Positions 37,537-49,442 of a DNA stretch of 64,000 bases are shown one piece after another. Source of the DNA: Granulicella sp. L46 (lineage in GTDB: Bacteria > Acidobacteriota > Terriglobia > Terriglobales > Acidobacteriaceae). A model generated the notes under the pieces. The model was not told the origin of the DNA and searched no databases. It worked only from the letters and a program-made list of their open reading frames with translations. The DNA is taken from contig NZ_LMUT01000003.1 in assembly GCF_009765785.1 (NCBI RefSeq), positions 129,292 to 193,291 on the forward strand. Reading direction: 5' to 3'. Made by a program: the position numbers and the translations under genes. Each line of letters starts with the position of its first letter. Within the stretch, counting starts at the first letter, position 1.

Positions 37537-39429
37537 CTATTCCTTATGCAGGAAGTAGGTTAGTTGAATGGTTCCGATAACATTGTGCTGTTGCCCCTGG
37601 GCTATCAGGGGTGCCTTCCACAGTTCGCCTTGCACGTTCGCCTTGATCTCAAAGTTGCGTAAGGGGCGTAACACGACGTCGGCGGAGAGGTCGTTCTGGG
37701 TAGTGCCTCCGGGAATAAAATCGTCTGCGGCCTTCGCTTGACGATATTGCAGTTGAATCTGCTGATCAGGACGAAGGTGCCAGGTTAGCCAGGCTTGGCC
37801 ACCGGTGCTCTCGCGGCCAATCCAGTCGCCGAGAATGTAACCCTTGTTGGTGTAGCCCTGGACCTGAACGTTTTCCCACATGAGAAGACGACCTTGATTG
37901 CTTTCAGGATCATGCACATTGGTGGTAAATCCTTCGGCGCGGAAGTCCACTCGCGGCAAGCCGGGTAAGCGCGCGATGTAAATGCCTGGTCGTAGGCCGG
38001 AGCGTCCGAGGTTGCTGATGGGGAAGACGTTGTCGTGGGCGAACGAATCCATATAGAGGGTAACGAGGTGATTGTCCCAGGGTGTTCTCCAGGTCAAGTC
38101 GAAGGTGCTGAAGCGGGCGCCGGGATTCTGCCTTGAAAACTTGACGTCGGGCTGCGCAGCCGTGACGCTGAAAAAGCTGCGGAGAAACGTGCCAATCGTG
38201 ATGGGCACGTTGCAGGTGGCAGATTGTGGGTCCGCCGGCGGCCCGCAATATTGTCCATGACCACCCCAGATGACGGAGCGCATGAAGCCGATCTCTAGAT
38301 CGGGTACCACCTTCATGCTGACCTTTTCCATATGAATCCAGGGGTCGCTGGGAAACTGGTGCCCTTGCAAGATGCCTACCATGAAGTCATAGCGAAAGAG
38401 TCCCACATATCGGGAGAGGCCCGGGATATAGAGCGGCTCTACCCGGTTGATCCGAAAGCTGTAAATGTCCTGCGCGTTGTTGGACCAGCCCATGGCGGCG
38501 CCAAGTGCCGGACCTAGCCATTCATCACTTCTGCCGAAGGAGACTTCGTTGCCGAGGAGGTGGACGGAGGCATTTGCCTCCAAAATCTGGACAGTGTCCT
38601 GGCCGGGAATTACGCCTGCAGGGATGGTGGTTTGAGGGACGTTGGGGGTTTGATCGATGGCGGCGAGTTGTGCAGCGACAGACGGGGAGTAGCCCATCGC
38701 AGACGGAGCATGTTGGTACTCGGCGCGGACGATGAGGCTAAATCTTCCGCCCTGCGCTTCTGCGCTGACGCCGGTGAGGTTGTTGAAGCCGGTCTCATCG
38801 GGACGGCCGTAGTCGTTGACGATGGTTTGACCGAGGTGGAAACTGTCGTTCAGGATCTCGCCGTTGATCTCACGGACACGGGTGTAGGCGCTGGCTGAGC
38901 GGAGAGTGGGTGACCGGTCGCCGGCCAACTCGGGAGCCAATTCTCGGCGGAGGGTTGCGTTGATCTCGACGGCCTCCGCGGGTGCATAGGTTGAGTGCAG
39001 CGACTCCTGAGAAAGGGTAAGCATGTGCGCGAGCGAAGCGCGTGTCCAGGGCCGCATGTCAAGGTACGCGGTTGGAAGATAGCCGAGGTAGTAGAGGCGC
39101 AAGGCGGCTGAGTAGATCCAACTGTCGACCGGAATGTACGCGGAGCCCGCGGTGCTGGCGGATGCGGCGGCTACCTCATGGTGAGAGGGGATAGGCTCGC
39201 CGCTTTGCGCGAGCGTCGGCGTCGCGAGCATACCTATCGCGGAAGAAGCGACCAATAGGGCGCGGAGGATCAGTCGTTTCGCGGGCGAGGCGGAGGTGAT
39301 GAACGATCGAGCTGACTGGCGGGAGAGAATCCGATGACTGGCAGGATGAAAGTCGATTGCTGCCTCCAAGGCGGGACGCACATGCAAGGATTGCGTTCTG
39401 GAACCCAAAGAAGATTGCTTACTTGGCAT
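37537..39429 (-). CDS. Capsule assembly protein of Wzi type
   Basis: Outer-membrane beta-barrel of about 630 aa, anchoring polysaccharide on the cell surface. An internal signal peptide lies near residues 50-75 (ALLVASSAIGMLATPTLAQ); the N-terminal helical plug carries YLGYLPTAYLDMRPWTRASLAHML, and the barrel contains alternating strands with motifs LGNEVSFGRSDEWLGP and RINRVEPLYIPGLSRYVGLFRYDFMVG, characteristic of the Wzi family. It is convergent with the initiating transferase and ends the EPS locus. Confidence 0.85.
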   Translation of the reverse strand: MPSKQSSLGSRTQSLHVRPALEAAIDFHPASHRILSRQSARSFITSASPAKRLILRALLVASSAIGMLATPTLAQSGEPIPSHHEVAAASASTAGSAYIPVDSWIYSAALRLYYLGYLPTAYLDMRPWTRASLAHMLTLSQESLHSTYAPAEAVEINATLRRELAPELAGDRSPTLRSASAYTRVREINGEILNDSFHLGQTIVNDYGRPDETGFNNLTGVSAEAQGGRFSLIVRAEYQHAPSAMGYSPSVAAQLAAIDQTPNVPQTTIPAGVIPGQDTVQILEANASVHLLGNEVSFGRSDEWLGPALGAAMGWSNNAQDIYSFRINRVEPLYIPGLSRYVGLFRYDFMVGILQGHQFPSDPWIHMEKVSMKVVPDLEIGFMRSVIWGGHGQYCGPPADPQSATCNVPITIGTFLRSFFSVTAAQPDVKFSRQNPGARFSTFDLTWRTPWDNHLVTLYMDSFAHDNVFPISNLGRSGLRPGIYIARLPGLPRVDFRAEGFTTNVHDPESNQGRLLMWENVQVQGYTNKGYILGDWIGRESTGGQAWLTWHLRPDQQIQLQYRQAKAADDFIPGGTTQNDLSADVVLRPLRNFEIKANVQGELWKAPLIAQGQQHNVIGTIQLTYFLHKE

Positions 39430-39649
39430 GCGGTGGCCTGGACTCACGAAACCCAACGTTACTCAAAGATAGTATAAGTCCTGCGCTGGCCGGGGGATCT
39501 TCGTGCGAGCGGCTTGGGTGTAGCCGGTTGAACACAGCGGAGATCGTGCTTTCGTGGGCAGGAGCGACTTCGGCCTTCTACTATAGAAAACTTTTGACAT
39601 CCTGCCGATAGCTGGTCTGCATCCGTGAGGGTGCGTGCGGCGGTGAGCG

Positions 39650-40367: not shown

Positions 40368-40853
40368 TTATTCGGGGAGGAGCAGGATCACTAAGACCAG
40401 GGCCTCGACAGCGAACATTCGGAAGGCCGCGTCCTGACCGTTCCAGAGCTTCGATTGCCACATTAGGAACCACTCGGCGCCGATGCATAGAAACGCGATG
40501 AACCACTGAAGCATTCCGGAGGTCAGTGCAATCACGCCCACCTGCTTGGCACGGTGGAACTCCGGCTGGGGACTGCGGAGGGTACGAAAGAGGGCTATGC
40601 TCCCCCACCAGCTGAGAGCTGCGTTGAGGATCTCCCACGCGATGATGCTGAGATAGAAGGCGAGGTGGATCCAGGGGGCGCGAATGGCGCGCCATAGGCC
40701 GTGGTTTCCGGGGAAGGTGGAGTCCATCATGAGGACATGCCGGACAAATTGGTAGTTAGAGTCGAAGTCGGTCAGGTTATTGAATGCGACGAGGGCGAAG
40801 AAGAAGCCGACCGCGGCGAGCAGCAGCATCTTGCAGGTTCGAATGGCGATCAT
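40368..40853 (-). CDS. DUF2165 family small membrane protein
   Basis: 161 aa with four hydrophobic helices, matching the DUF2165 layout: an N-terminal helix VGFFFALVAFNNLTDFDSNYQFVRHVLMMDSTFPG, a W-rich centre, and a C-terminal helix pair ending in EWFLMWQSKLWNGQDAAFR. Function of the family is not known. The start overlaps the stop of the cytochrome gene upstream, so the two are co-translated. Confidence 0.8.
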   Translation of the reverse strand: MIAIRTCKMLLLAAVGFFFALVAFNNLTDFDSNYQFVRHVLMMDSTFPGNHGLWRAIRAPWIHLAFYLSIIAWEILNAALSWWGSIALFRTLRSPQPEFHRAKQVGVIALTSGMLQWFIAFLCIGAEWFLMWQSKLWNGQDAAFRMFAVEALVLVILLLPE

Positions 40854-41731
40854 CGGGAGGACTCCTGAAAGCTGGCGAGATACCGTCGCAACGCAGTGAG
40901 TGTGGCGCCGTCATACTGCGGGCTGGAAGCCATCTGCGATCGCGGGATGATGTTCTTTGGGTGTAGGACGTAGGCGTCGAATTGAGTTGGATTGGCTACG
41001 GCCTCTTGCGCCAGGTCGCGCCAAAGGAGTTTGGACTTCTGTCCACCCTCTTCCGAACGGCTGTGGCAGCGAAAGCAATTTTGGCGCGCAATGGCGTAGC
41101 CCTGTTGCACTACTGAATCTTTGGCGGCTGCGCCTTGCGGCTTAATGGGTGCATAGACGGTTTGTTCGCGGCGTAGATCGAGTCGCACGACTCCCCAGGG
41201 GATCTGCGCTTCGTCATCGTGGGAGAGGACTCGGAACGACGGCTTGAAGCTGGGATGCGACACCATGTAGGGACCCATGGGCAATCGAACTATTCCCAAT
41301 GGCCAATGATCCGATTCCAGGCCATTCATTTTGAGGACGAGGAGCGGGTGATGGGCATGAACGTAGGACGCTGGATAGTGTGCGGCGTACTTGTCGTCGC
41401 AAATGGCGATGACCATCGTCGCTCCGCTCTGCGCGCCGAGCCAGCCCGGTAATCTCTCCAAGGAGACGCCGCTGATCTGCACGGTTGTTCCAAAGTTTGG
41501 GTCGTCGGTAACGGTGTAGGTTTCTTGCGGAAGAGACAGCAGAGACTTGTAGGAGACGAATCGCGTTTGACCTTGCGGAACACCTTGCAATGACCCACCT
41601 ATCTCGAGGTCGCTGGGTGCGTGGCGCTCAGTCTGAAGGACGAGGCGATGTTCCGTCTCGAGGGCGGCCGCACATACAGTCATCCCGCACAGCACCAGAA
41701 GTGCCATCAGAGACCGGCTTGTATGGGTCAT
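40850..41731 (-). CDS. Moco-domain-like / cytochrome c fusion, secreted
   Basis: 293 aa, signal peptide at residues 1-22. The middle (about 55-190) follows the pattern of an oxidoreductase molybdopterin-like domain (VQISGVSLERLPGWLGAQSGATMVIAICDD..., LLVLKMNGLESDHWPLGIVRL), yet without a visible Moco cysteine. The C-terminal 85 residues carry a c-type haem motif, NCFRCHS, with a later methionine-bearing segment RSQMASSP as axial ligand. It may pass electrons in the periplasm. Overlaps the DUF2165 gene by 4 bases. Confidence 0.7.
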   Translation of the reverse strand: MTHTSRSLMALLVLCGMTVCAAALETEHRLVLQTERHAPSDLEIGGSLQGVPQGQTRFVSYKSLLSLPQETYTVTDDPNFGTTVQISGVSLERLPGWLGAQSGATMVIAICDDKYAAHYPASYVHAHHPLLVLKMNGLESDHWPLGIVRLPMGPYMVSHPSFKPSFRVLSHDDEAQIPWGVVRLDLRREQTVYAPIKPQGAAAKDSVVQQGYAIARQNCFRCHSRSEEGGQKSKLLWRDLAQEAVANPTQFDAYVLHPKNIIPRSQMASSPQYDGATLTALRRYLASFQESSR

Positions 41732-41805: not shown

Positions 41806-42258
41806 ATGGACCCACTCGAAGCACTGGAACACCTTGGTCTCGTGCTGCCGTCGCCGCCGGCGCCGGGGGGCAATTACACGTCGGCGAAGACTGCGGGCAA
41901 TATTGTTTACCTGTCTGGAGTGGTCTCTCAGACTGCAGATGGCATCCTGACGGGCATCGTGGGGTTGGACCGTTCGATTGACGAAGGCTACGCGGCGGCT
42001 CGTGCCTGCGCGCTGTTGCAGCTCGCGGTGTTGCAAAAACATCTTGGCTCGTTGAGCAAGGTGCGAGGAATTCTCACGGTCAACGGCTATGTAAACTCTG
42101 TTGCGGGCTTTGCGGAGTCGCCGAAAGTGATCAATGGCGCGTCGGATTTGTTTCTTGCAGTCTTCGGCGAGGCTGGGCGGCATGTTCGCGCGGCAATTGG
42201 CGTGAGCGGCTTGCCGCGCCATGCGCTGGTCGAACTGCAAATGACGGTGGAAGTCTGA
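41806..42258 (+). CDS. RidA family protein (YjgF/L-PSP)
   Basis: 150 aa, a longer Rid-type protein that hydrolyses reactive enamines or imines, or acts as a related deaminase. SAKTAGNIVYLSGVVSQTADG, a central RGILTVNGYVNSVAGF and the C-terminal VRAAIGVSGLPRHALVELQMTVEV match the family; the arginine in VRAAIGV corresponds to the active-site Arg. The stop is shared with the ATG of the truncated acetamidase downstream (TGATG). Confidence 0.88.
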   Translation: MDPLEALEHLGLVLPSPPAPGGNYTSAKTAGNIVYLSGVVSQTADGILTGIVGLDRSIDEGYAAARACALLQLAVLQKHLGSLSKVRGILTVNGYVNSVAGFAESPKVINGASDLFLAVFGEAGRHVRAAIGVSGLPRHALVELQMTVEV

Positions 42259-42479
42259 TGGCCGAACATGCGCTCTCCGCCGTGCCAATGCATTCACGAT
42301 GGAACGCGGCGCTGCCGCCACGCCTGACGATTGACTCGGGGGATGTGGTGCACTTTGAGTGCCAGGACGCGAGCGGCGCCGAGGTCCATCGCGGCATGAC
42401 GGCGGAGGAGTTTCAAAGGATTGATTGTGGATTGATTCACGCGCTTACCGGGCCCGCGACCTGGGAGGCCGCATCCTAA
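42258..42479 (+). pseudogene. Truncated acetamidase/formamidase (N-terminal 73 aa)
   Basis: The N-terminus resembles acetamidase/formamidase family proteins: WNAALPPRLTIDSGDVVHFECQDASG and a later TGPATWEAA, where full-length members continue for more than 200 residues. Here a TAA follows at once and no frame in the next 300 bases continues the family. It is therefore a fragment, coupled to RidA by TGATG; the pair hints at a former amide/imine degradation operon. Confidence 0.7.
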
Positions 42480-42556
42480 GTGGATAAACCGCTGGAGCCT
42501 AAAGGAAGCATCGTTATGATTGAAAGCAGGAACAGGGCGACGCGTTTGAGTTTCAT
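42476..42556 (-). CDS. Possible small secreted peptide (26 aa)
   Basis: A short frame with an excellent ribosome site (AGGAG, 7 bases before the ATG) encoding a basic start MKLKR, a hydrophobic core ALFLLSIITMLPL and a short polar tail, i.e. a signal peptide or membrane peptide alone. It lies after the terminator of the RiPP operon and overlaps antisense with the end of the acetamidase fragment. Could be a remnant of a longer secreted protein gene. Confidence 0.35.
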   Translation of the reverse strand: MKLKRVALFLLSIITMLPLGSSGLST

Positions 42557-42710
42557 GAAAGTTCTCCTAGGGCCTAAGGAAATCCTTAATTCATTTCGTC
42601 CTTGGCTTGATATGAATTGAGCTTAGAAGTGCGCGGCCTCAAGATATATAGAGGTCTTTACACGCGGATGCATGTGGTTCTACTGGGGCTCGAAGAAACA
42701 ACGACTGAAG

Positions 42711-42746
42711 AAAGAAAAGCCTGCGACGCGAGAACGCGCTACAGGC
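42711..42746 (-). terminator. Rho-independent terminator of the RiPP operon
   Basis: Minus strand: GCCTG-TAG-CGCG, loop TTCT, CGCG-TCG-CAGGC followed by TTTTCTTTCTTC. It stands 24 bases after the last gene of the leftward operon, marking its end. Confidence 0.75.
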
Positions 42747-42769
42747 CTGCAAACTTCGGTGAGAAATTC

Positions 42770-43093
42770 TTACTGCGGCGGCTGTTGATCTTGGGGAGGC
42801 TGCTGATCCTGATGCTCATTAGCGACGTCGGCGGCGAGACGGAGTTCTTCGTTCGCCTCGCTTAGAAGCTCTTTCGCTCTCTGAGCATGGCCGCCGAGCT
42901 GGCCGTCGTTGGCTCTCTGCGCATAGCTGATGTAGTTGAAGGCCTGGACGACGTTGTCCTGCGCGGCCGCGAGGTTGCCATGGCGGTAGCGGTCGATGTT
43001 GACGTACGGCGTTGGTACGCCCTGGGCGATTGCCATGGCGCACACTACCGAAGCGCTGGCAACGGTAGTGAGGACGATATTGCGGCGTTTCAT
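42770..43093 (-). CDS. Small secreted protein of the RiPP operon (107 aa)
   Basis: Not recognised as a family. Signal peptide at residues 1-23 (ends AMAIAQG), then a helical region of about 65 residues with the look of a helical hairpin (AAQDNVVQAFNYISYAQRANDGQLGGHAQRA, SEANEELRLAADVAN), and a Gln/Pro tail made of two DQQPPQ repeats. AAGGAG precedes the ATG by 7 bases. It is the last gene of the operon, 73 bases after the I78-like protein. It might bind the mature peptide or the envelope, but nothing proves this. Confidence 0.7.
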   Translation of the reverse strand: MKRRNIVLTTVASASVVCAMAIAQGVPTPYVNIDRYRHGNLAAAQDNVVQAFNYISYAQRANDGQLGGHAQRAKELLSEANEELRLAADVANEHQDQQPPQDQQPPQ

Positions 43094-43166
43094 GATGTTT
43101 CTCCTTTGTTCAATTGAAATGGAATACGGCGTTGCTGCTGCGTGGCTTGGAGCGGACGGCGGCGAG

Positions 43167-43880
43167 TTAGTCCCACACGGCCATGATGATTTCGCCCTTC
43201 TCGTTGAGCAGGAGGGTTATACGGTTGGGGTCGGAGTCGAAAGTGCCAAGCCCGTCGGACTCACGGATGACACGTAGCCTGGCGGGTAGATCCTCTTCGC
43301 GAACAATGCTTTCCTGCGGTCGACCGGCTGGCGCGGTTTGTCCTTTGGGAACAAAGAGTTTACCCACGCACTTGACGCAGTCTTTCGGAGGGGCAGCGGC
43401 TTCCACATAACCGGGAATCGATTTCAGGACGACGCGGTTGGCCGCGCCGTGCACTCGCACGCCGTTGAAGGGATGTCCGGGCTCAATCGTGAAGACAGCT
43501 TCGACCTCAGGATAGGAAGTCGGCGCCGTATTTTCGAACGGCGCTTCGGCGATGAGTGCGAGATCAAGGATGCCGTCGGCAGGGATACCTTTGGTGAGGG
43601 GAACGAGTTCCACGGATTCCCAGCCTTCCGTGGTGACAAGACCGCGCACACGGACTACATCCAATTGCGGGGCGTGGGTGCTGCGCAAGACTTCAACGCT
43701 GGTGATCCAGAAGACGGGCGCCGTGTTCGGAGCATCGCCCTGGTCAGGCTTGGGCGCGGAGACTGATTCCTGCGGGTTGGGTGCGTTGACCGCGAGCGGT
43801 TTACTGCTTTGTGCGTTGCCGATGCCCGTGAGTATGAGGGTGGCATTCAGAAGTGCGGCTAACTTGGTTCTGGTTTGCAT
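43167..43880 (-). CDS. Secreted protein with I78 inhibitor-like C-terminus (237 aa)
   Basis: Signal peptide at residues 1-23, a Pro/Ala-rich linker, a beta-rich central domain (about 60-160) with no recognised family, a KDCVKCVGKLFVP segment (two cysteines), and a last 45 residues that follow the layout of the I78 protease-inhibitor family: LPARLRVIRESDG, then DPNRITLLLNEKGEIIMAVWD, where I78 proteins usually have DyRpdRLNxxLDxxGxIxxvxCG. AAGGAG lies 9 bases before the ATG. Placed 35 bases after the radical SAM gene, so probably part of the same function: protecting, presenting or processing the peptide. Confidence 0.7.
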   Translation of the reverse strand: MQTRTKLAALLNATLILTGIGNAQSSKPLAVNAPNPQESVSAPKPDQGDAPNTAPVFWITSVEVLRSTHAPQLDVVRVRGLVTTEGWESVELVPLTKGIPADGILDLALIAEAPFENTAPTSYPEVEAVFTIEPGHPFNGVRVHGAANRVVLKSIPGYVEAAAPPKDCVKCVGKLFVPKGQTAPAGRPQESIVREEDLPARLRVIRESDGLGTFDSDPNRITLLLNEKGEIIMAVWD

Positions 43881-43915
43881 CGTTGTTACTCCTTATTTTT
43901 TGGAGATGATTTGAG

Positions 43916-45148
43916 TTATGCGCAGGCGGCTGGAGCGGGTTCGAGTTCTATCGGTGCTGAGCCAGGGAATACGGAGAAGTGGCCTGGTTGCACGGGTCGG
44001 GTGCCGTTCGTGAGGCTGGCTTCCATCTGATCGAAGGCTGAGAGGATAAGGTTGGCCGGCGTAATTTGAACGAGATTGCAGAAAGAAGTCTGAGTACTGG
44101 CAAACGTGCCGTTCTCTGACAGCTTGTTGACGGGCGCGCCGCCTCCGCAGAGCGAGAAGTATCCGCATTCCTTCTTGCAAGCTTCGACCCCGGCGCGGAT
44201 GTCGGTAACCATAACTGCCATCGCGGGACTGCTCAGCATTTCTTCTATGGTGTGCTGGTGTACATTGCCGATGATGAAGTTGTTGTAGCGCTCATTCTTG
44301 TATCCAAGCAGCTCGGGCGAGAACGACGATACGTTGCCATTGCAATCGATGTTGAGCATTGCCAGGGGTTCGACCTGTTCGTTGCCGACCGGAGCCTCTT
44401 CTGGACGGAAAATGCGAGGGATCAGGCCGTCGATTTCACGAATGAAATTGATGCCTGGATTCTGGCGAGAGATGGTCCAGAATCGTTGCAGAAAGGCGTT
44501 GAACTTGTTCCGCATGCTGTCACGCGACAGCGTCATCAGCTCGGAGACGTGGTCGCCTTCGGACTCTTCGACGTTGAAGCAGACATCTTCGATTCCCTCC
44601 TCAACATAGAAAGCATGCAATTCGTCCGGGCATTCCAGGCCTTCTTTAGAAAGCACAGAGATGACGTGGAACGGAATTCCCTCCTCCTTCAGCAGGCGTG
44701 CTCCGCGGATCGCGCGGTCGAAGGTTCCCTTGCCCGAACGGGTGATACGGTTCGCGTCGTGCATGTGGCGAGGGCCATCGATACTGACTCCCACCCCCAC
44801 GTTCCAACGACGGATCAGGTCGCACCACTCCTTCGTTACCAGGGTTCCGTTGGTCTGGAAAGAGTGGCGAATTTCGATGGAGGGAGGCCGCAGCTGTTCG
44901 ATTGCCAGAAAGGCGGATTCGTAATATGAGACCGGAAGCACAAGCGGCTCTCCAGCATGCCAGATGACCGTGATCTGATTACCAGCATAGGGAGAATCGA
45001 AGACCTTCTGGAAGCTCGCGGTGACGGTATCGATGCTCATGACCGATGTGTCGTCGCGAGTTGGCAGATAGCAGTATTTGCAACGAATGTTGCAGAACGG
45101 TGTAGGCTGCAAAACGATCGTTTGAATTCTCGGTTCCGAGCTCTGCAT
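43916..45148 (-). CDS. grrM: Radical SAM/SPASM peptide-modifying enzyme (GRRM type)
   Basis: 410 aa. QPTPFCNIRCKYCYLP holds the 4Fe-4S CxxxCxxC (Cys19, 23, 26), followed by WHAGEPLVLPVSYYE and the long SFQTNGTLVTKEWCDLI and VGVSIDGPRHMHD strands of the TIM barrel. The C-terminal SPASM region has ACKKECGYFSLCGGG and a final TSFCNL, for auxiliary clusters. The whole sequence pattern fits the enzymes of GRRM systems, which install three-residue cyclophanes (aromatic-x-Asn) on glycine-rich precursors. AAGGA lies upstream of the ATG, 40 bases after the precursor gene. Confidence 0.88.
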   Translation of the reverse strand: MQSSEPRIQTIVLQPTPFCNIRCKYCYLPTRDDTSVMSIDTVTASFQKVFDSPYAGNQITVIWHAGEPLVLPVSYYESAFLAIEQLRPPSIEIRHSFQTNGTLVTKEWCDLIRRWNVGVGVSIDGPRHMHDANRITRSGKGTFDRAIRGARLLKEEGIPFHVISVLSKEGLECPDELHAFYVEEGIEDVCFNVEESEGDHVSELMTLSRDSMRNKFNAFLQRFWTISRQNPGINFIREIDGLIPRIFRPEEAPVGNEQVEPLAMLNIDCNGNVSSFSPELLGYKNERYNNFIIGNVHQHTIEEMLSSPAMAVMVTDIRAGVEACKKECGYFSLCGGGAPVNKLSENGTFASTQTSFCNLVQITPANLILSAFDQMEASLTNGTRPVQPGHFSVFPGSAPIELEPAPAACA

Positions 45149-45188
45149 GATCTCTGTGTCCTTTCTGGTGGGTTGGGAGGGTCAGGTG

Positions 45189-45584
45189 CTACCAGTTGTG
45201 CCAGAAGTTGTGCCAGTTGTGCCAACCCCCGTTGCCCCAGTTATGCCAGCCGCCATTTCCCCAGTTGTGCCAGCCGCCGTTGCCCCAGCCGCCATTCCGC
45301 CAGCCGCCATTGCCCCAGCCGCCGTTACGCCATCCGAACCCTCCGTTAAGCCAGTCGGCGAGCATGAGAGGCATTCCGGATGGGCTTTTGAAGACGGCGT
45401 CATTGACCGAGGAGACGGAGGCGCGGATGTCGCTGAGGCGGTCGGCGACCGATAGATTGTCGACCGTGCTGGTGGGGGTGGGTTCCGCTTGACCCTGTGT
45501 TGCGGCGAGAGCGGCAGAAATGCCAACTACGCCAGCGGGTATGAGTAATGCGAGAGCCTTTGAAGTGCTTTTCTTTGCGCTCAT
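45189..45584 (-). CDS. grrA: Glycine/tryptophan-rich RiPP precursor (GrrA/OscA-like)
   Basis: 131 aa, first gene of the operon, AAGGAG 7 bases before the ATG. Residues 1-33 are a Lys-rich start and a hydrophobic export signal (ALLIPAGVVGISAALAA, ending GQAE). A leader of about 40 residues follows (VADRLSDIRASVSSVNDAVF). From residue 78 to 131 the tail holds twelve W-x-N motifs (WLN, WRN, WGN, WHN types), spaced mostly by GG. Known of the family: the radical SAM partner joins Trp and Asn of such triplets. The tail has no Cys, Ser or Thr, so lanthionine or thiazole chemistry is excluded. Confidence 0.88.
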   Translation of the reverse strand: MSAKKSTSKALALLIPAGVVGISAALAATQGQAEPTPTSTVDNLSVADRLSDIRASVSSVNDAVFKSPSGMPLMLADWLNGGFGWRNGGWGNGGWRNGGWGNGGWHNWGNGGWHNWGNGGWHNWHNFWHNW

Positions 45585-45781
45585 GGTGATTCTCCTTGAT
45601 GACTAATGGTAGGTAGCCGCGATACATAAATGAATCCGTGGCGCTACACGTCTCGGGGTGTGAGGCTACATAAGTAGGCCATGTGGTTCCGCATGGGTCG
45701 AGGTGGAGCGGGAGAGGCGGAACGAGTACAATCTCGACACAACCCGCGCTTCACTCTGGATTTTGTCGAGGAATGTGCAGC

Positions 45782-48700
45782 ATGTCGCAGTGGCCGCGTG
45801 ATCAGGATGCTCGCAAAGATGAAGGCGTTTCTGCGCGCGCGTTTTTCATCGCATTCGTCGCAGCGTGCGTTTTGTCTTTCGCCCCGTGCGGGTGGGCACA
45901 GTACCGATCAACGCAGTGGACGGCTGACTCTGGCCTCCCGCAGAACAGCGTCCGCGGCATTGTCCACGCCGCAGACGGCTACCTCTGGGTCGCCACGCTG
46001 GATGGAATTGCAAAGTTCGACGGGCTCCGCTTTACCGTCTACAACAAGAGCAACACGCCGGGCATCACGTCCAACCGCTTTGTCGCGATGGCTGAAGGAG
46101 ACGGCGGCGATCTCTGGATGGCTAGCGAAGACGGGAACCTCATTCGATATCGCGCTGGCCACTTCCAACGGATGGGAGAGGCAGAAGGACTCCGTCCCTA
46201 TTCGGTTGGCGCCATCACCTACGATCATCGCGGTGGGTTCTGGGTGGACTCTGACGACCGGGTGTACCGTTGGGCACCCCAGTCCGGGCGCTTCGAAAGA
46301 GAAGCGTTCGACCGCGACGACACGCGATTCATTCCTTTGTGGTGGGGGGGGACAGGTTTCTGGGCGATTCAGAATGGCAATCTGGTATGTTTCACGCGCG
46401 GTCACCTGACGACACATCTGCTTCCGAAGACATTGACGCTCGCACACATTCAAGGTGTCGCGGTTGGAGGAGACGATGTCGTGTGGATTGGTACTACGGA
46501 TGGCCATCTCGGAAGACTGGTTGACGGTTCCCTGGCCGTGGGAAAGGGAACAGTTACGACAGACTGGCTGAGTTCGAAGAGGGAGGGTTGGAGAGGCCAG
46601 ATCGCGCCGGACTTCAGACGCACGGTGATCTTCCCGTCTGACGGCATAGAAAAGGGGATCCCCTATAACGTGGTCGTTGCCGACGACGAAGATAACATGT
46701 GGGTGGGTTCGGAGGATGAAGGGTTATTCCGGGTTCAACGACAATCGATTAAGTCGTTGTCTTCAACCCAAGGCCTTGCGAGTGACGGCGTTTATCCAGT
46801 AATGGAATCCAGCGCGGGCGACATGTGGGTGGGAAGCTGGCCGGCGGGTCTGACGCGTGTGCATGACGGCCGGGTAACGGCCTTTACGAAGGCGGACGGC
46901 GTCCCTGGCCTGGTGACAGCGCTCGCCGAAGATCGATCGGGAACCATCTGGGTGGGGTCGCATAACGGAGTGCGGATATTCTCCCACGGACGATTGATCG
47001 TTCCTCCCGGCATCCCCGAAGAGAAACTTCCGGTCGTCCAGGTAATCCATCCGATGGGCGATGGCGCCATGATGCTCGGAACACCGAAGGGCATCTACCT
47101 ACTCGCTGGATCTAACTCGCGCTGGATGACAACGCGCGATGGCCTGGCGAGTGACGATGTTCGTGTGATCCTCGAGGACCGCAGGGGAGATACGTGGGTC
47201 GGTGGATATGGCGGTCTCACGCGCATCCACAACGGAGTGATGACGCGCTGGACAGAGGCGGAGGGTTTGCCCAGCAATAACATCCGCGCTATCGACCAGG
47301 ACAGCGCAGGCGAGATCTGGGTGGGAACCTATGACGGTGGTATCGGATGGCTTCACAACGGCAAATGGGCAGTTTTCAATCAGAGTTCAGGACTCTACGA
47401 TAATGGAGCTTTTCAGATCCTTGAAGATGGTCAGGAGCGGTTCTGGATTAGCTCCAACCGTGGCATCTATCGGGTAAGCCGGAGACAGCTCATCGACGTG
47501 GCGGAAGGGCACGAAAAGAGGGTCGACTCAGTGGCCTACGGGAGGGCCGACGGCATGTTGAGCATGGAATGCAATGGCGGAGTATGGCCAGCGGGAGCCA
47601 AAGACGCCCATGGATTCCTTTGGTTTCCAACCGAGAAGGGTGTCGCCATTGTCGATCCAACGTCTGTGTCCGTTGACAACTTGCCTCCGAAAGTCGTGAT
47701 TGAATCAGCATCGGTTGAACATAAGGTGCAAACTGCAGTCGACCAGGTTGTGATGCGGCCTGGCGAGACGAACCTCGAGGTACAGTACACGGCGCTGAGC
47801 TACTCGAGGCCGGAACAGATTTCATTTCGTTACAAGCTGGATGGCGTGGATGAGAACTGGCAGGAAGTGGGTCATAGACGAACGGCGTACTACACGCATC
47901 TGCCGCCCGGCGATTATATCTTCCGTGTGACGGCGAGGAACAGCGACGGGGTCGAAAGCCTGGCGGACAGCACGCTGCGGGTGACAGTAATTCCGCCGTT
48001 CTATCGTCGCTGGTGGTTTTTCGCCTTAATCATTTTGACGACACTGGGGATTCTATGGCTGCTTTGGAATCGCCGCGCGCAAGAAGTGGCAAGAGAGCAG
48101 GCATCACAGCAGGCATTCTCACGTGAGCTAATTGCGTCTCAAGAAAACGAACGGCGGCGCATCGCTGCGGAGTTACACGACAGCCTGGGTCAGCGACTGA
48201 TCATTATCAACAATCTTGCGCTCTTCCTGCTGAAGACAAAGGGCAAGGTTCGTTCTGAAGAAGATAAGCAGGAAACCATTGAGGAAATCAGTTCGGAAGC
48301 CACGCAGGCGATCGAAGAAACTCGAGCGATTTCCTATGCACTGAGGCCATTCCAGCTTGACCGGTTGGGACTGACGAAGGCGATTCAGGCGATGTTGACA
48401 AAGGTAGAGCGCGCGTCAGAGATTGAACTGAAAGCCGACATCCAAGACATTGACGACGCCTTTCCCGAAGAGTTGCGCATAAACTTTTATCGCATCGTAC
48501 AGGAGGGCCTGAACAACATTGTGAAGCATTCTCATGCGACTCAGGGCACAGTGACAGCGCATCGAACGAAGTCGTCCGTAGTGTTGACAATTTCCGATAA
48601 CGGCCAGGGACTGCCGAGCGAACCACGCAATATGAAGCCCGGAGCTGGAGGATTTGGGTTGACCGGCATCCGCGAACGCGCCATGCTGATGAGTGGAACG

Positions 48701-48793
48701 CTTCAGATCAAGAGCGAGAACGGGAATGGGACCGTGCTCGTGATCCACTTCCCACTGGAGAAAAGGAGCGCCTACGATGAGCCAAGTAATTGA
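45782..48793 (+). CDS. Hybrid-propeller sensor histidine kinase (Reg_prop, Y_Y_Y, HisKA_3)
   Basis: About 1003 aa from the ATG at 45782 (GAGGA nine bases before; the frame is open to 45683). Signal peptide, then two seven-bladed periplasmic propellers built of Reg_prop repeats (LWVATLDGIAKFDG, MWVGSEDEGLFRV, TWVGGYGGLTRIHNG, IWVGTYDGGIGWL and others), a Y_Y_Y domain, a membrane helix near residues 747-766, a HisKA_3 dimerisation helix with the phospho-acceptor in RRIAAELHDSLGQR (His799), and a GHKL ATPase with SDNGQGLP and GGFGLTGIRERA. Coupled to its NarL-type regulator by overlap, and divergent from the RiPP operon. Confidence 0.87.
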   Translation: MSQWPRDQDARKDEGVSARAFFIAFVAACVLSFAPCGWAQYRSTQWTADSGLPQNSVRGIVHAADGYLWVATLDGIAKFDGLRFTVYNKSNTPGITSNRFVAMAEGDGGDLWMASEDGNLIRYRAGHFQRMGEAEGLRPYSVGAITYDHRGGFWVDSDDRVYRWAPQSGRFEREAFDRDDTRFIPLWWGGTGFWAIQNGNLVCFTRGHLTTHLLPKTLTLAHIQGVAVGGDDVVWIGTTDGHLGRLVDGSLAVGKGTVTTDWLSSKREGWRGQIAPDFRRTVIFPSDGIEKGIPYNVVVADDEDNMWVGSEDEGLFRVQRQSIKSLSSTQGLASDGVYPVMESSAGDMWVGSWPAGLTRVHDGRVTAFTKADGVPGLVTALAEDRSGTIWVGSHNGVRIFSHGRLIVPPGIPEEKLPVVQVIHPMGDGAMMLGTPKGIYLLAGSNSRWMTTRDGLASDDVRVILEDRRGDTWVGGYGGLTRIHNGVMTRWTEAEGLPSNNIRAIDQDSAGEIWVGTYDGGIGWLHNGKWAVFNQSSGLYDNGAFQILEDGQERFWISSNRGIYRVSRRQLIDVAEGHEKRVDSVAYGRADGMLSMECNGGVWPAGAKDAHGFLWFPTEKGVAIVDPTSVSVDNLPPKVVIESASVEHKVQTAVDQVVMRPGETNLEVQYTALSYSRPEQISFRYKLDGVDENWQEVGHRRTAYYTHLPPGDYIFRVTARNSDGVESLADSTLRVTVIPPFYRRWWFFALIILTTLGILWLLWNRRAQEVAREQASQQAFSRELIASQENERRRIAAELHDSLGQRLIIINNLALFLLKTKGKVRSEEDKQETIEEISSEATQAIEETRAISYALRPFQLDRLGLTKAIQAMLTKVERASEIELKADIQDIDDAFPEELRINFYRIVQEGLNNIVKHSHATQGTVTAHRTKSSVVLTISDNGQGLPSEPRNMKPGAGGFGLTGIRERAMLMSGTLQIKSENGNGTVLVIHFPLEKRSAYDEPSN

Positions 48794-49442
48794 AGTTCTG
48801 CTTGCGGATGACCATCCGGTTGTACGTCGGGGGCTGAAGGCGACGATTGAAGAAGACAGCGATCTGCGTGTTGTCGCGGAGGCTGCGGATGGTAACGACG
48901 CCTTGCGTCAGATCGTCGATCTTCGGCCGGCGGTTGCGATTCTCGATATTGATATGCCGGGCCTCAACGGACTCGGGGTGGCGCGCGAGTTGTTGGCGCA
49001 GAACATCGGGACGCACGTCGTGTTTATGACGTTCCATGCCGACGAGGATCTGATGCGCGCCGCAATGGATGCAGGCGGCAAGGGATATCTGCTCAAGGGC
49101 AGCGAGACGGACGAGGTAGGAGCGGCCATACACGCCGTGTGTGCAGGCAGGACCTACATCGGGTCCAAGATGGCGGCGGTTCTGCTTAAGCAGAAGGATG
49201 AATTATCCGGAGGCGTACAGCAGCTGGACATCACTGTACTGACTCCGTCGGAGAAGAAAATCCTTCGGCTCATCGCCGATGGCCTTTCCAGCAAGGAGAT
49301 CGGTGACTCACTTTCGATCCATTACCGAACGGTGGAAAATCACCGCACAAATATGTGTCGCAAGCTAAACATCGAAGGCGCGAATGCGCTCGCGCGGTTT
49401 GCGTTGCAACATCGATCTGCGCTGCATGAACGACTGCTTTAA
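48777..49442 (+). CDS. NarL/LuxR family response regulator
   Basis: 221 aa. Receiver domain with acidic pocket DD (residues 11-12), phospho-acceptor Asp57 in AILDIDMPG, the Thr/Phe switch VFMTFHAD and Lys at KGYLLKGSE. C-terminal GerE helix-turn-helix LTPSEKKILRLIADGLSSKEIGDSLSIHYRTVENHRTNMCRKL. ATG lies 17 bases inside the kinase gene. It should be the output of the sensor kinase and may control the divergent RiPP operon, which is inferred from position only. Confidence 0.9.
   Translation: MSQVIEVLLADDHPVVRRGLKATIEEDSDLRVVAEAADGNDALRQIVDLRPAVAILDIDMPGLNGLGVARELLAQNIGTHVVFMTFHADEDLMRAAMDAGGKGYLLKGSETDEVGAAIHAVCAGRTYIGSKMAAVLLKQKDELSGGVQQLDITVLTPSEKKILRLIADGLSSKEIGDSLSIHYRTVENHRTNMCRKLNIEGANALARFALQHRSALHERLL

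What the first reader, a model, noticed from the sequence alone, without database searches (positions are those of the whole stretch)
42711..45584. GRRM-type RiPP operon with twelve W-x-N cyclophane motifs in an acidobacterial setting
The precursor at 45189-45584 has an export signal, a leader and a tail of twelve W-x-N triplets. It is followed at 40 bases by a radical SAM/SPASM enzyme whose motifs fit GRRM maturases, then by two secreted proteins, and a clear terminator at 42711-42746 ends the unit. Established: GRRM radical SAM enzymes make three-residue Trp-Asn or similar cyclophanes. New here: the number of motifs, the secreted-precursor layout and the companion genes.
Basis: partly seen in the sequence, partly recalled or inferred. 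Interest (0 to 1): 0.88.

Follow-up and report, generated by a model that had tools for sequence, protein, structure and literature searches.

The report
Stapled-peptide operon with inhibitor-like partner
A soil bacterium carries a four-gene unit that makes an exported peptide predicted to be stapled at up to twelve tryptophan-asparagine points, a known kind of system, and an unnamed secreted partner protein that looks partly like a protease inhibitor travels with one branch of that system across several bacterial groups.

Summary
45189-45584 (-) encodes a 131-aa precursor with a signal-like N-terminus and 12 W-x-N motifs (shuffled mean 1.36; 0 of 2000 shuffles reach 12). A radical SAM enzyme 40 bases on passes NCBIfam's GrrM/OscB model (404 bits, cut-off 310); two signal-bearing proteins and a hairpin follow. 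The precursor misses the GrrA cut-off by 0.5 bit. This is a GrrM-type cyclophane RiPP in an Acidobacteriaceae genome.

Motif number and export signal are not special: 72 related loci have a median of 8 W-x-N, three have 12, and 68 precursors have a hydrophobic N-terminus. What stands out is Orf3 (43167-43880). It follows grrM in 47 of 49 resolved loci of one GrrM clade and in 0 of 33 outside. Nine of 784 sampled genomes hold it, each beside GrrM. It reaches no family threshold. Its C-terminal domain resembles I78/potato-inhibitor-I inhibitors by predicted fold and weakly by sequence; its N-terminal domain weakly resembles NigD-like proteins. In Reyranella-type loci grrA and orf3 are duplicated together without grrM. 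I read Orf3 as an exported partner of the stapled peptide; its action is inferred.

The parts
45189..45584 (-). grrA-like precursor, 131 aa: signal-like N-terminus, short leader, W-x-N tail
   Evidence: (TIGR04260, 30.5 bits)
45486..45584 (-). predicted Sec-type signal peptide (residues 1-33; the S8 homologue has A-H-A at the matching end)
   Evidence: sequence by eye; 13-residue hydropathy maximum 2.45; no signal-peptide program run
45414..45440 (-). conserved leader motif R-[hydrophobic]-x-x-[hydrophobic]-R-x-x-[hydrophobic] (residues 49-57, RLSDIRASV), possible GrrM recognition site
   Evidence: motif found in 67 of 72 best precursors against 4.4% of shuffled ones; role inferred
45192..45353 (-). 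core: twelve W-x-N motifs in the last 54 residues
   Evidence: W and N codons against S8: 21 identical, 4 synonymous, 0 nonsynonymous
43916..45148 (-). grrM: cyclophane-forming radical SAM/SPASM maturase, GrrM/OscB type
   Evidence: TIGR04261 404.3 bits, cut-off 310; PF04055; PDB relatives by sequence are anaerobic sulfatase-maturating enzymes and other radical SAM proteins
43167..43880 (-). orf3: exported two-domain partner protein with DCxxCxGK motif; no family in Pfam or NCBIfam at threshold
43407..43727 (-). orf3 N-terminal beta-sandwich domain, weakly NigD-like
   Evidence: AlphaFold2 pLDDT 85.9; VIA-align best rows 5bmt Z 6.1, 4pqx Z 5.9, 3nqi Z 4.9, 3k6o Z 4.7, next row Z 3.2; Foldseek weak, 4pqx at rank 16
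43170..43391 (-). orf3 C-terminal domain, I78/potato-inhibitor-I-like
   Evidence: 3w0d AFUEI Z 6.8, rmsd 2.2, 59 aligned, Foldseek probability 0.97 but E 0.31; PF11720 weak hits in 9 of 34 homologues
42770..43093 (-). orf4: small exported protein with HGNLAAAQ and GGHAxRAKELL motifs; optional member
   Evidence: no family found at threshold
42717..42748 (-). terminator-like stem-loop with U-rich tail
   Evidence: not listed by the generic scan
45683..48793 (+). divergent sensor kinase (Reg_prop propeller, Y_Y_Y, HisKA_3, HATPase_c), probable regulator
   Evidence: found beside the operon in L034/L049, L045, L046, not in L050, L051, L053
48777..49442 (+). NarL/LuxR-type response regulator, probable regulator
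   Evidence: found beside the operon in L034/L049, L045, L046, L050, not in L051, L053

Best explanation
The unit is a GrrM-type triceptide (three-residue-cyclophane RiPP) operon. In the cytoplasm GrrM binds the precursor through its leader and joins each Trp to the Asn two residues on, up to twelve times. The cross-linked precursor leaves through the Sec pathway and signal peptidase removes the N-terminus, so no dedicated transporter or leader peptidase is needed. Orf3 is exported by the same route and acts on the outside as the dedicated partner of this peptide; its I78/potato-inhibitor-I-like C-terminal domain most likely blocks or docks a protease, protecting the exported peptide or controlling its processing. 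A divergent two-component system probably controls expression. Shown: gene anatomy, family of the enzyme, conservation of motifs, near-constant link of orf3 with one GrrM clade. Inferred: cross-linking and its extent, Sec export, regulation, what Orf3 does.
For: GrrM/OscB model far over its cut-off; OscB is reported to join Trp C7 to Asn or Asp C-beta (PMC11002830, passages). N is two residues after W in 365 of 489 tail Trp of 40 loci with a full orf3 and 187 of 232 in the 32 other loci with a precursor, with a varied middle residue. W/N codons show no nonsynonymous change against S8, while residues 1-75 have 29. Hydrophobic N-terminus in 68 of 72 precursors and leader motif in 67 of 72. Orf3 next to grrM in 47 of 49 resolved loci of one clade (support 100/99), 0 of 33 resolved outside it. 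Orf3 in 6 of 399 (one split over two contigs) and 3 of 385 genomes, all 9 beside GrrM. grrA and orf3 duplicated as a pair without grrM in L067, L070, L078, G855 and, in part, L066. I78-like C-terminus: the top 13 Foldseek rows and top 26 VIA-align rows are all I78/potato-inhibitor-I proteins; 9 of 34 homologues touch PF11720; profile against a true I78 protein P 8.8e-6, probability 83; the Orf3 profile itself drew out a true I78 protein at E 1.1e-4.
Against: No chemistry or export was observed. Orf3 of the window itself matches no Pfam family, I78 matches of homologues stay under the gathering score, and the C-terminal Cys seen in the I78 proteins is Trp here. A whole-genome PF11720 scan picked Orf3 as the best hit in only 3 of the 8 Orf3-bearing genomes among 13 searched. 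Foldseek E-values are all above 0.1, and the VIA-align note warns that Z under 8 can be a common arrangement. The stretch before PNR is not extremely variable, so inhibition may be lost. Two members of the clade (L054, L056) lack orf3, and L081 carries two grrA with one orf3.
Confidence: 0.6

Rival explanations
1. Orf3 is an immunity or sequestering protein: the exported stapled peptide is a bacteriocin-like weapon and Orf3 binds it in the periplasm of the producer.
For: Pairing of orf3 with grrA, not with grrM, in duplicated loci; N-terminal domain closest in structure to NigD-like proteins, NigD being a suggested immunity protein of the nigrescin locus (PMC9308784, passage).
Against: NigD similarity is by predicted fold only, Z about 6; NigD immunity is itself only suggested; no activity of a GrrA product is mentioned in the passages I read; the I78-like domain would be unexplained.
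Confidence: 0.2
2. Orf3 is a biosynthetic helper of GrrM, such as a chaperone or cofactor protein for cross-linking.
For: Immediate downstream position and clade-wide link to GrrM.
Against: Most Orf3 homologues carry signal-like N-termini (by eye, listing), so they should leave the cytoplasm; duplicated with grrA without a second grrM; 33 resolved GrrM loci outside the clade do without it.
Confidence: 0.08
3. The tail is a Gly/Trp/Asn-rich structural or surface protein that is not cross-linked; the radical SAM gene is a chance neighbour.
For: Low-complexity tail: 19 G, 13 W, 12 N of 56 residues.
Against: A precursor-like ORF lies near GrrM in 72 of 85 loci examined, from several phyla; W-to-N spacing kept while the middle residue varies.
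Confidence: 0.04
4. Orf3's C-terminal domain keeps the inhibitor fold but has lost inhibition and serves only as a binding or anchoring module.
For: Weak sequence match to I78, no C-terminal Cys.
Against: P-N-R is kept in all 34 aligned homologues.
Confidence: 0.25

Closest known systems
GrrM/OscB three-residue-cyclophane (triceptide) systems, TIGR04261/TIGR04260
   Same: Enzyme passes the curated model; precursor aligns full length with the GrrA/OscA1 model; W-x-N motifs; precursor before enzyme. OscB chemistry: Trp C7 to Asn/Asp C-beta (PMC11002830, passages).
   Different: Precursor is 0.5 bit under the GrrA cut-off; extra gene orf3, absent from the 33 resolved loci outside this clade.
Sec-exported RiPPs (bufferins)
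   Same: Precursor with a Sec-type signal; [quoted passage not shown]
   Different: Bufferins are modified by MNIO enzymes, mostly on Cys; here Trp/Asn motifs and a radical SAM enzyme; no Cys in the window's precursor.
I78 / potato inhibitor I protease inhibitors (AFUEI, CI-2, eglin c)
   Same: Predicted fold of the Orf3 C-terminal domain; RVI...PNR...I pattern beside that of a true I78 protein.
   Different: Under Pfam's threshold, no C-terminal Cys, fused to a separate N-terminal domain, encoded in a RiPP operon.
NigD-like proteins of Bacteroidota
   Same: Best structural rows of the Orf3 N-terminal domain.
   Different: No sequence match found; different phylum and locus.

Membership tests
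GrrM/OscB cyclophane-forming radical SAM maturase | Score over the curated cut-off of TIGR04261 | tested here: met
   404.3 bits against 310
GrrM/OscB cyclophane-forming radical SAM maturase | CX3CX2C radical SAM motif and SPASM cysteines | tested here: met
   invariant in A1, 5 sequences; Pfam SPASM itself 19.2 bits, under its 21.5 cut-off
GrrM/OscB cyclophane-forming radical SAM maturase | Neighbouring precursor with repeated aromatic-x-Asn motifs | tested here: met
   12 W-x-N, 40 bases upstream
GrrM/OscB cyclophane-forming radical SAM maturase | Trp-to-Asn C-C cross-linking | not testable with these tools
   needs co-expression and mass spectrometry or NMR
GrrA/OscA1 precursor | Score over the curated cut-off of TIGR04260 | tested here: not met
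   30.5 bits against 31, E 4.2e-7, profile positions 4-118 of 118; hence called GrrA-like
I78 peptidase inhibitor (Orf3 C-terminal domain) | Score over Pfam gathering score of PF11720 | tested here: not met
   no hit for the window protein; best of ten homologues scanned singly 18.9 bits against 23.6
I78 peptidase inhibitor (Orf3 C-terminal domain) | Potato-inhibitor-I-type fold | tested here: inconclusive
   predicted model only; 3w0d Z 6.8, rmsd 2.2, 59 aligned, CI-2 and eglin rows Z 4.6-6.0; Foldseek E 0.31
I78 peptidase inhibitor (Orf3 C-terminal domain) | Protease inhibition | not testable with these tools
   needs protein
NigD-like (Orf3 N-terminal domain) | Fold of the NigD-like C-terminal domain | tested here: inconclusive
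   Z 4.7-6.1 for the four Bacteroidota entries on top, of which 4pqx is titled NigD-like and the others uncharacterised, then 3.2; Foldseek probability 0.15 for 4pqx; 3qwn, titled NigD-like, Z 5.4 with the whole model
Sec-exported RiPP precursor | Sec signal peptide used in the natural host | not testable with these tools
   hydrophobic N-terminus only

The most novel reading that the evidence does not exclude
Orf3 defines an unnamed family of exported, NigD-like plus inhibitor-like proteins that are the dedicated outside partners (protector, processing brake or immunity protein) of heavily stapled Sec-exported peptides, a protease-inhibitor-type fold tied to cyclophane RiPPs, so that peptide and inhibitor act as one secreted pair.
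Probability: 0.3. Interest if true: 0.72.

Novelty: new variant of a known kind. Interest (0 to 1): 0.55.

Why it matters
The passages on triceptides that I could read describe the chemistry of these enzymes, not what GrrA-type peptides do. A companion gene that follows the enzyme through one whole branch, is duplicated with the precursor in some loci, and has an inhibitor-like domain gives a direct, testable handle on that function. Polypeptides with up to twelve strained rings passing through the Sec pathway would also test how much cross-linking that channel tolerates.

Tried and rejected
Number of motifs as the novelty: rejected, because 12 W-x-N also occur in L049 and L123, and 72 loci have a median of 8.

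Orf4 as a core member: rejected. It occurs in 31 of 398 genomes of the class sample, far more than orf3 (6 of 399), and a profile found it in 8 of the 86 loci: WIN, L045, L046, L049, L050, L051, L053, L063; in L051 it is upstream and in L053/L063 over 4 kb away on the other strand.

Orf3-like genes outside the clade: not established. 388 neighbouring ORFs of the 39 loci without a scored orf3 plus L160 and L161 were compared with the Orf3 profile; the best was a gene before grrA on a Phaeobacter plasmid (L160, probability 6.9, P 0.005, 175 columns), but a shadow ORF in L175 reached 19.6, so this is not evidence.

PF11720 in relatives: 0 of 81 genomes, and the control genomes did not ring either, so that call shows nothing. 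Among 13 genomes behind my loci, 8 carry Orf3; at E up to 1 the Orf3 C-terminus was the best hit in Reyranella massiliensis (0.007), R. aquatilis (8.7e-4, second copy 0.015) and, at chance level, Enhydrobacter (0.51); in the other five it was not listed. One search was meant as a second I78 protein but used the wrong frame; it serves only as an out-of-frame control (probability 0.4).

PDB sequence searches with the Orf3 profiles gave nothing convincing (best E 0.34; none; best E 0.038 to an RNase P protein, AFUEI only at 0.8). No Orf3 match in the plasmid and phage collections. No Rfam family in 42500-46500. Clustering of all ORFs around GrrM merged true genes with shadow ORFs and was not used. 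Base composition shows no sharp break at the operon.

Rows dropped before counts: one search kept the best 80 of 187 relatives, so the clade statistics are for GrrM near the window's type. 13 of the 85 loci gave no precursor under my limits; one of them, L122, has an F-x-N-rich ORF over my length limit. Of 43 full-length Orf3 ORFs, 34 went into alignment A2 (L057 with unread bases, L058 and seven near-duplicates or close relatives left out). 47 orf3-bearing loci = 41 with full ORFs + 6 cut by contig ends. Of the 8 genomes with a match, two weak ones (G152, G388) hold stops and were set aside. Of the 7, four gave only partial hits (L166 and L168 look like one-domain relatives, L167 is an I78 protein, L165 is unclear), and G777 gave one extra short fragment.

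Literature: primary triceptide papers (10.1021/jacs.2c00521, 10.1038/s41557-020-0519-z) are not held, so I cannot say whether they list this Orf3. Orf3 has no name to search for; searches around it whose listings showed no paper on it: (listings only, several cut to the first 10-30 papers). Passages were read from PMC11002830, PMC10373908, PMC10885120, PMC12452194, PMC9308784. The link of NigD with nigrescin is from the passage.
Full report
WHAT IS THERE. On the minus strand of the window, four genes follow one another with gaps of 40, 35 and 73 bases: a 131-aa precursor (45189-45584), a 410-aa radical SAM protein (43916-45148), a 237-aa protein, Orf3 (43167-43880), and a 107-aa protein, Orf4 (42770-43093). 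A stem-loop with a U-rich tail follows (about 42717-42748; -24.8 kcal/mol, z -3.77), though the generic scan did not list it. The window lies in G000, contig C21. The nearest named GrrM is 85% identical, in Acidobacterium sp. S8.

THE PRECURSOR. It has a lysine-bearing hydrophobic N-terminus that probably ends near A33, a leader, and a tail with exactly twelve W-x-N motifs. Shuffling the protein gives a mean of 1.36 and never reached 12 in 2000 tries; shuffling the tail alone gives 2.78 and never 12. Against the S8 homologue, tail W and N codons are identical (21) or synonymous (4) and never changed in meaning, while residues 1-75 show 29 nonsynonymous and 16 synonymous codons. NCBIfam's GrrA/OscA1 model aligns over positions 4-118 of 118 with 30.5 bits, half a bit under its cut-off, so I call it GrrA-like.

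THE ENZYME. It passes the GrrM/OscB model with 404.3 bits against 310; the next model, AmcB, scores 302.1 and is under its own cut-off of 425. The radical SAM cysteines and the C-terminal cysteines are invariant in five acidobacterial sequences, the window's included. A review reports that OscB joins Trp C7 to the C-beta of Asn or Asp two residues on (PMC11002830, passages read).

THE WIDER FAMILY. Among 200 acidobacterial genomes, 5 including the window's pass the GrrM cut-off; of their loci two have Orf3 and three do not. A scan of named genomes found 187 GrrM relatives, of which the best 80 were kept. In 72 of 85 examined a precursor-like ORF lies nearby (82 candidates, a few of them spurious, e.g. 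in L125). The number of W-x-N in the best precursor has a median of 8; it is 12 in three loci (window, L049, L123) and 0 in four that use F-x-N. 68 of 72 have a hydrophobic N-terminal stretch, and 67 of 72 a leader motif that 4.4% of shuffled sequences show. N stands two places after W in 365 of 489 tail Trp (40 loci with full orf3) and 187 of 232 (the 32 others, six of them with orf3 cut by a contig end), with G, H, R, N and others between. So both the motif number and the export signal belong to the family at large.

ORF3, THE REAL SURPRISE. Profile searches found 43 full-length Orf3 ORFs in 41 of the 86 loci and six more loci with Orf3 cut by a contig end. In a maximum-likelihood tree of 85 GrrM proteins one branch of 51 (support 100/99) holds all 47 Orf3 loci, two cut contigs (L061, L077) and two that lack it with full flanks (L054 Methylocella, L056). 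Outside the branch none of 34 has it, one of these being cut (L124), hence 0 of 33 resolved. The branch spans Acidobacteriota, Alphaproteobacteria and Gammaproteobacteria (Luteibacter). In whole genomes Orf3 occurs in 6 of 399 of the window's class, one of them (G363) split over two contigs, and in 3 of 385 of the Reyranella class. GrrM lies beside it in all nine: the window, G096, G250, G287, G330, G363 and the three. GrrM over the cut-off was found in 5 of 385 genomes of what the handles show to be the same class sample; the other two have no recognisable Orf3 in their loci.

ANATOMY OF ORF3. N-terminus signal-like by eye, with a conserved Gln (Q24); then two domains, with a DCxxCxGK motif at the start of the second; P218-N219-R220 and W236 invariant in 34 aligned homologues. 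Neither Pfam nor NCBIfam names it at threshold. AlphaFold2 gives a beta-sandwich (residues 57-146) and a second domain (about 164-237) after a disordered N-terminus (mean pLDDT 74.9, pTM 0.43). The second domain's best PDB row is the elastase inhibitor AFUEI (Z 6.8, rmsd 2.2, 59 aligned), followed by CI-2 and eglin c; Foldseek agrees in order, with poor E-values from 0.31 up. Sequence agrees weakly: 9 of 34 homologues touch PF11720 (best E 0.0014; those scanned singly are under the gathering score), a true I78 protein of Paracoccus aligns with the domain profile (probability 83, P 8.8e-6), and the Orf3 profile drew a true I78 protein from an alphaproteobacterial genome (E 1.1e-4; Pfam E 6.1e-7). 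Against this, a whole-genome PF11720 scan chose Orf3 as best hit in only 3 of 8 Orf3-bearing genomes, once at chance level, and the C-terminal Cys of those I78 proteins is Trp here. I therefore say I78-like, not I78. The first domain, modelled alone (pLDDT 85.9), gives four Bacteroidota entries, NigD-like or uncharacterised, at Z 4.7-6.1 and then a drop to 3.2, again weak.

WHAT ORF3 GOES WITH. In L067, L070, L078 and G855 a second grrA-orf3 pair follows the first orf3, with no second grrM seen; in L078 and L066 the second orf3 is cut by the contig end, and in L066 no first grrA was found by my limits. These are Reyranella-type loci and may be one event. It suggests that Orf3 is matched to the peptide, not to the enzyme. 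Against this, L081 has two grrA and one orf3.

REGULATION. A divergent sensor kinase (Reg_prop, Y_Y_Y, HisKA_3; 45683-48793) and a NarL-type regulator (48777-49442) flank the operon. Of six loci tested, both were found beside it in L034, L045 and L046, only the regulator in L050, neither in L051 and L053.

HOW IT MOST LIKELY WORKS. GrrM cross-links the tail inside the cell, Sec exports the product, signal peptidase cuts it, and Orf3 meets it outside, where the inhibitor-like domain guards it or brakes its processing. The first part follows from family membership; export from sequence; the role of Orf3 is inference. An immunity role is the main rival; NigD was suggested, not shown, to be an immunity protein (PMC9308784, passage). 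Sec export of RiPP precursors is described as highly unusual and shown in the natural host only for bufferins (PMC12452194, passages).

NOVELTY. The peptide and enzyme are new members of a known kind. The clade-wide exported partner makes it a new variant. The listings of eight searches showed no paper on it, but it has no name to search for and the primary triceptide papers are not held, so priority is open.

Noticed in passing
L067 5687-9192; L070 5294-9250; L078 5666-8729; L176 (G855): Tandem layout grrA-grrM-orf3-grrA-orf3: precursor and partner duplicated together, one enzyme seen for two precursors.
   Followed up: partly
L160 2986-5188: Conjugative plasmid of Phaeobacter piscinae carries grrM with a W-x-N precursor, annotated only as hypothetical protein, overlapping it upstream; the secreted-looking 220-aa gene before it looks Orf3-like by eye but the profile test is not significant.
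   Followed up: partly
window 42258-42479: 73-aa ORF matching only positions 12-76 of 373 of the acetamidase/formamidase family: apparently a gene remnant next to the operon's end.
   Followed up: no
window 40368-41731: DUF2165 membrane protein and a signal-bearing protein with weak cytochrome-c-like and molybdopterin-oxidoreductase-like matches, overlapping by 4 bases.
   Followed up: no
L045 7919-8584, L046 8309-8932, L050 7976-8611 (L045 in the reversed orientation); L034 4487-5197: Orf4-type domain fused to a further domain (SGNWTIYAYNV...); the L034 copy has no Pfam match. A further Orf4-like match lies elsewhere in the window's genome, G000:C5:381685-381966.
   Followed up: partly
L113, L119, L120, L127, L175: GrrM loci whose precursors use F-x-N repeats instead of W-x-N (for example FPNFPN in L127 and L175); in L113, L119 and L120 the N-terminus is not clearly hydrophobic.
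   Followed up: no
L095 5083-5980; L081 4782-5963: Two different precursors in tandem before one GrrM, one of them with WRNGGG-type spacing.
   Followed up: no
window 37537-39456 (-): Capsule assembly Wzi family protein a few kilobases from the operon.
   Followed up: no
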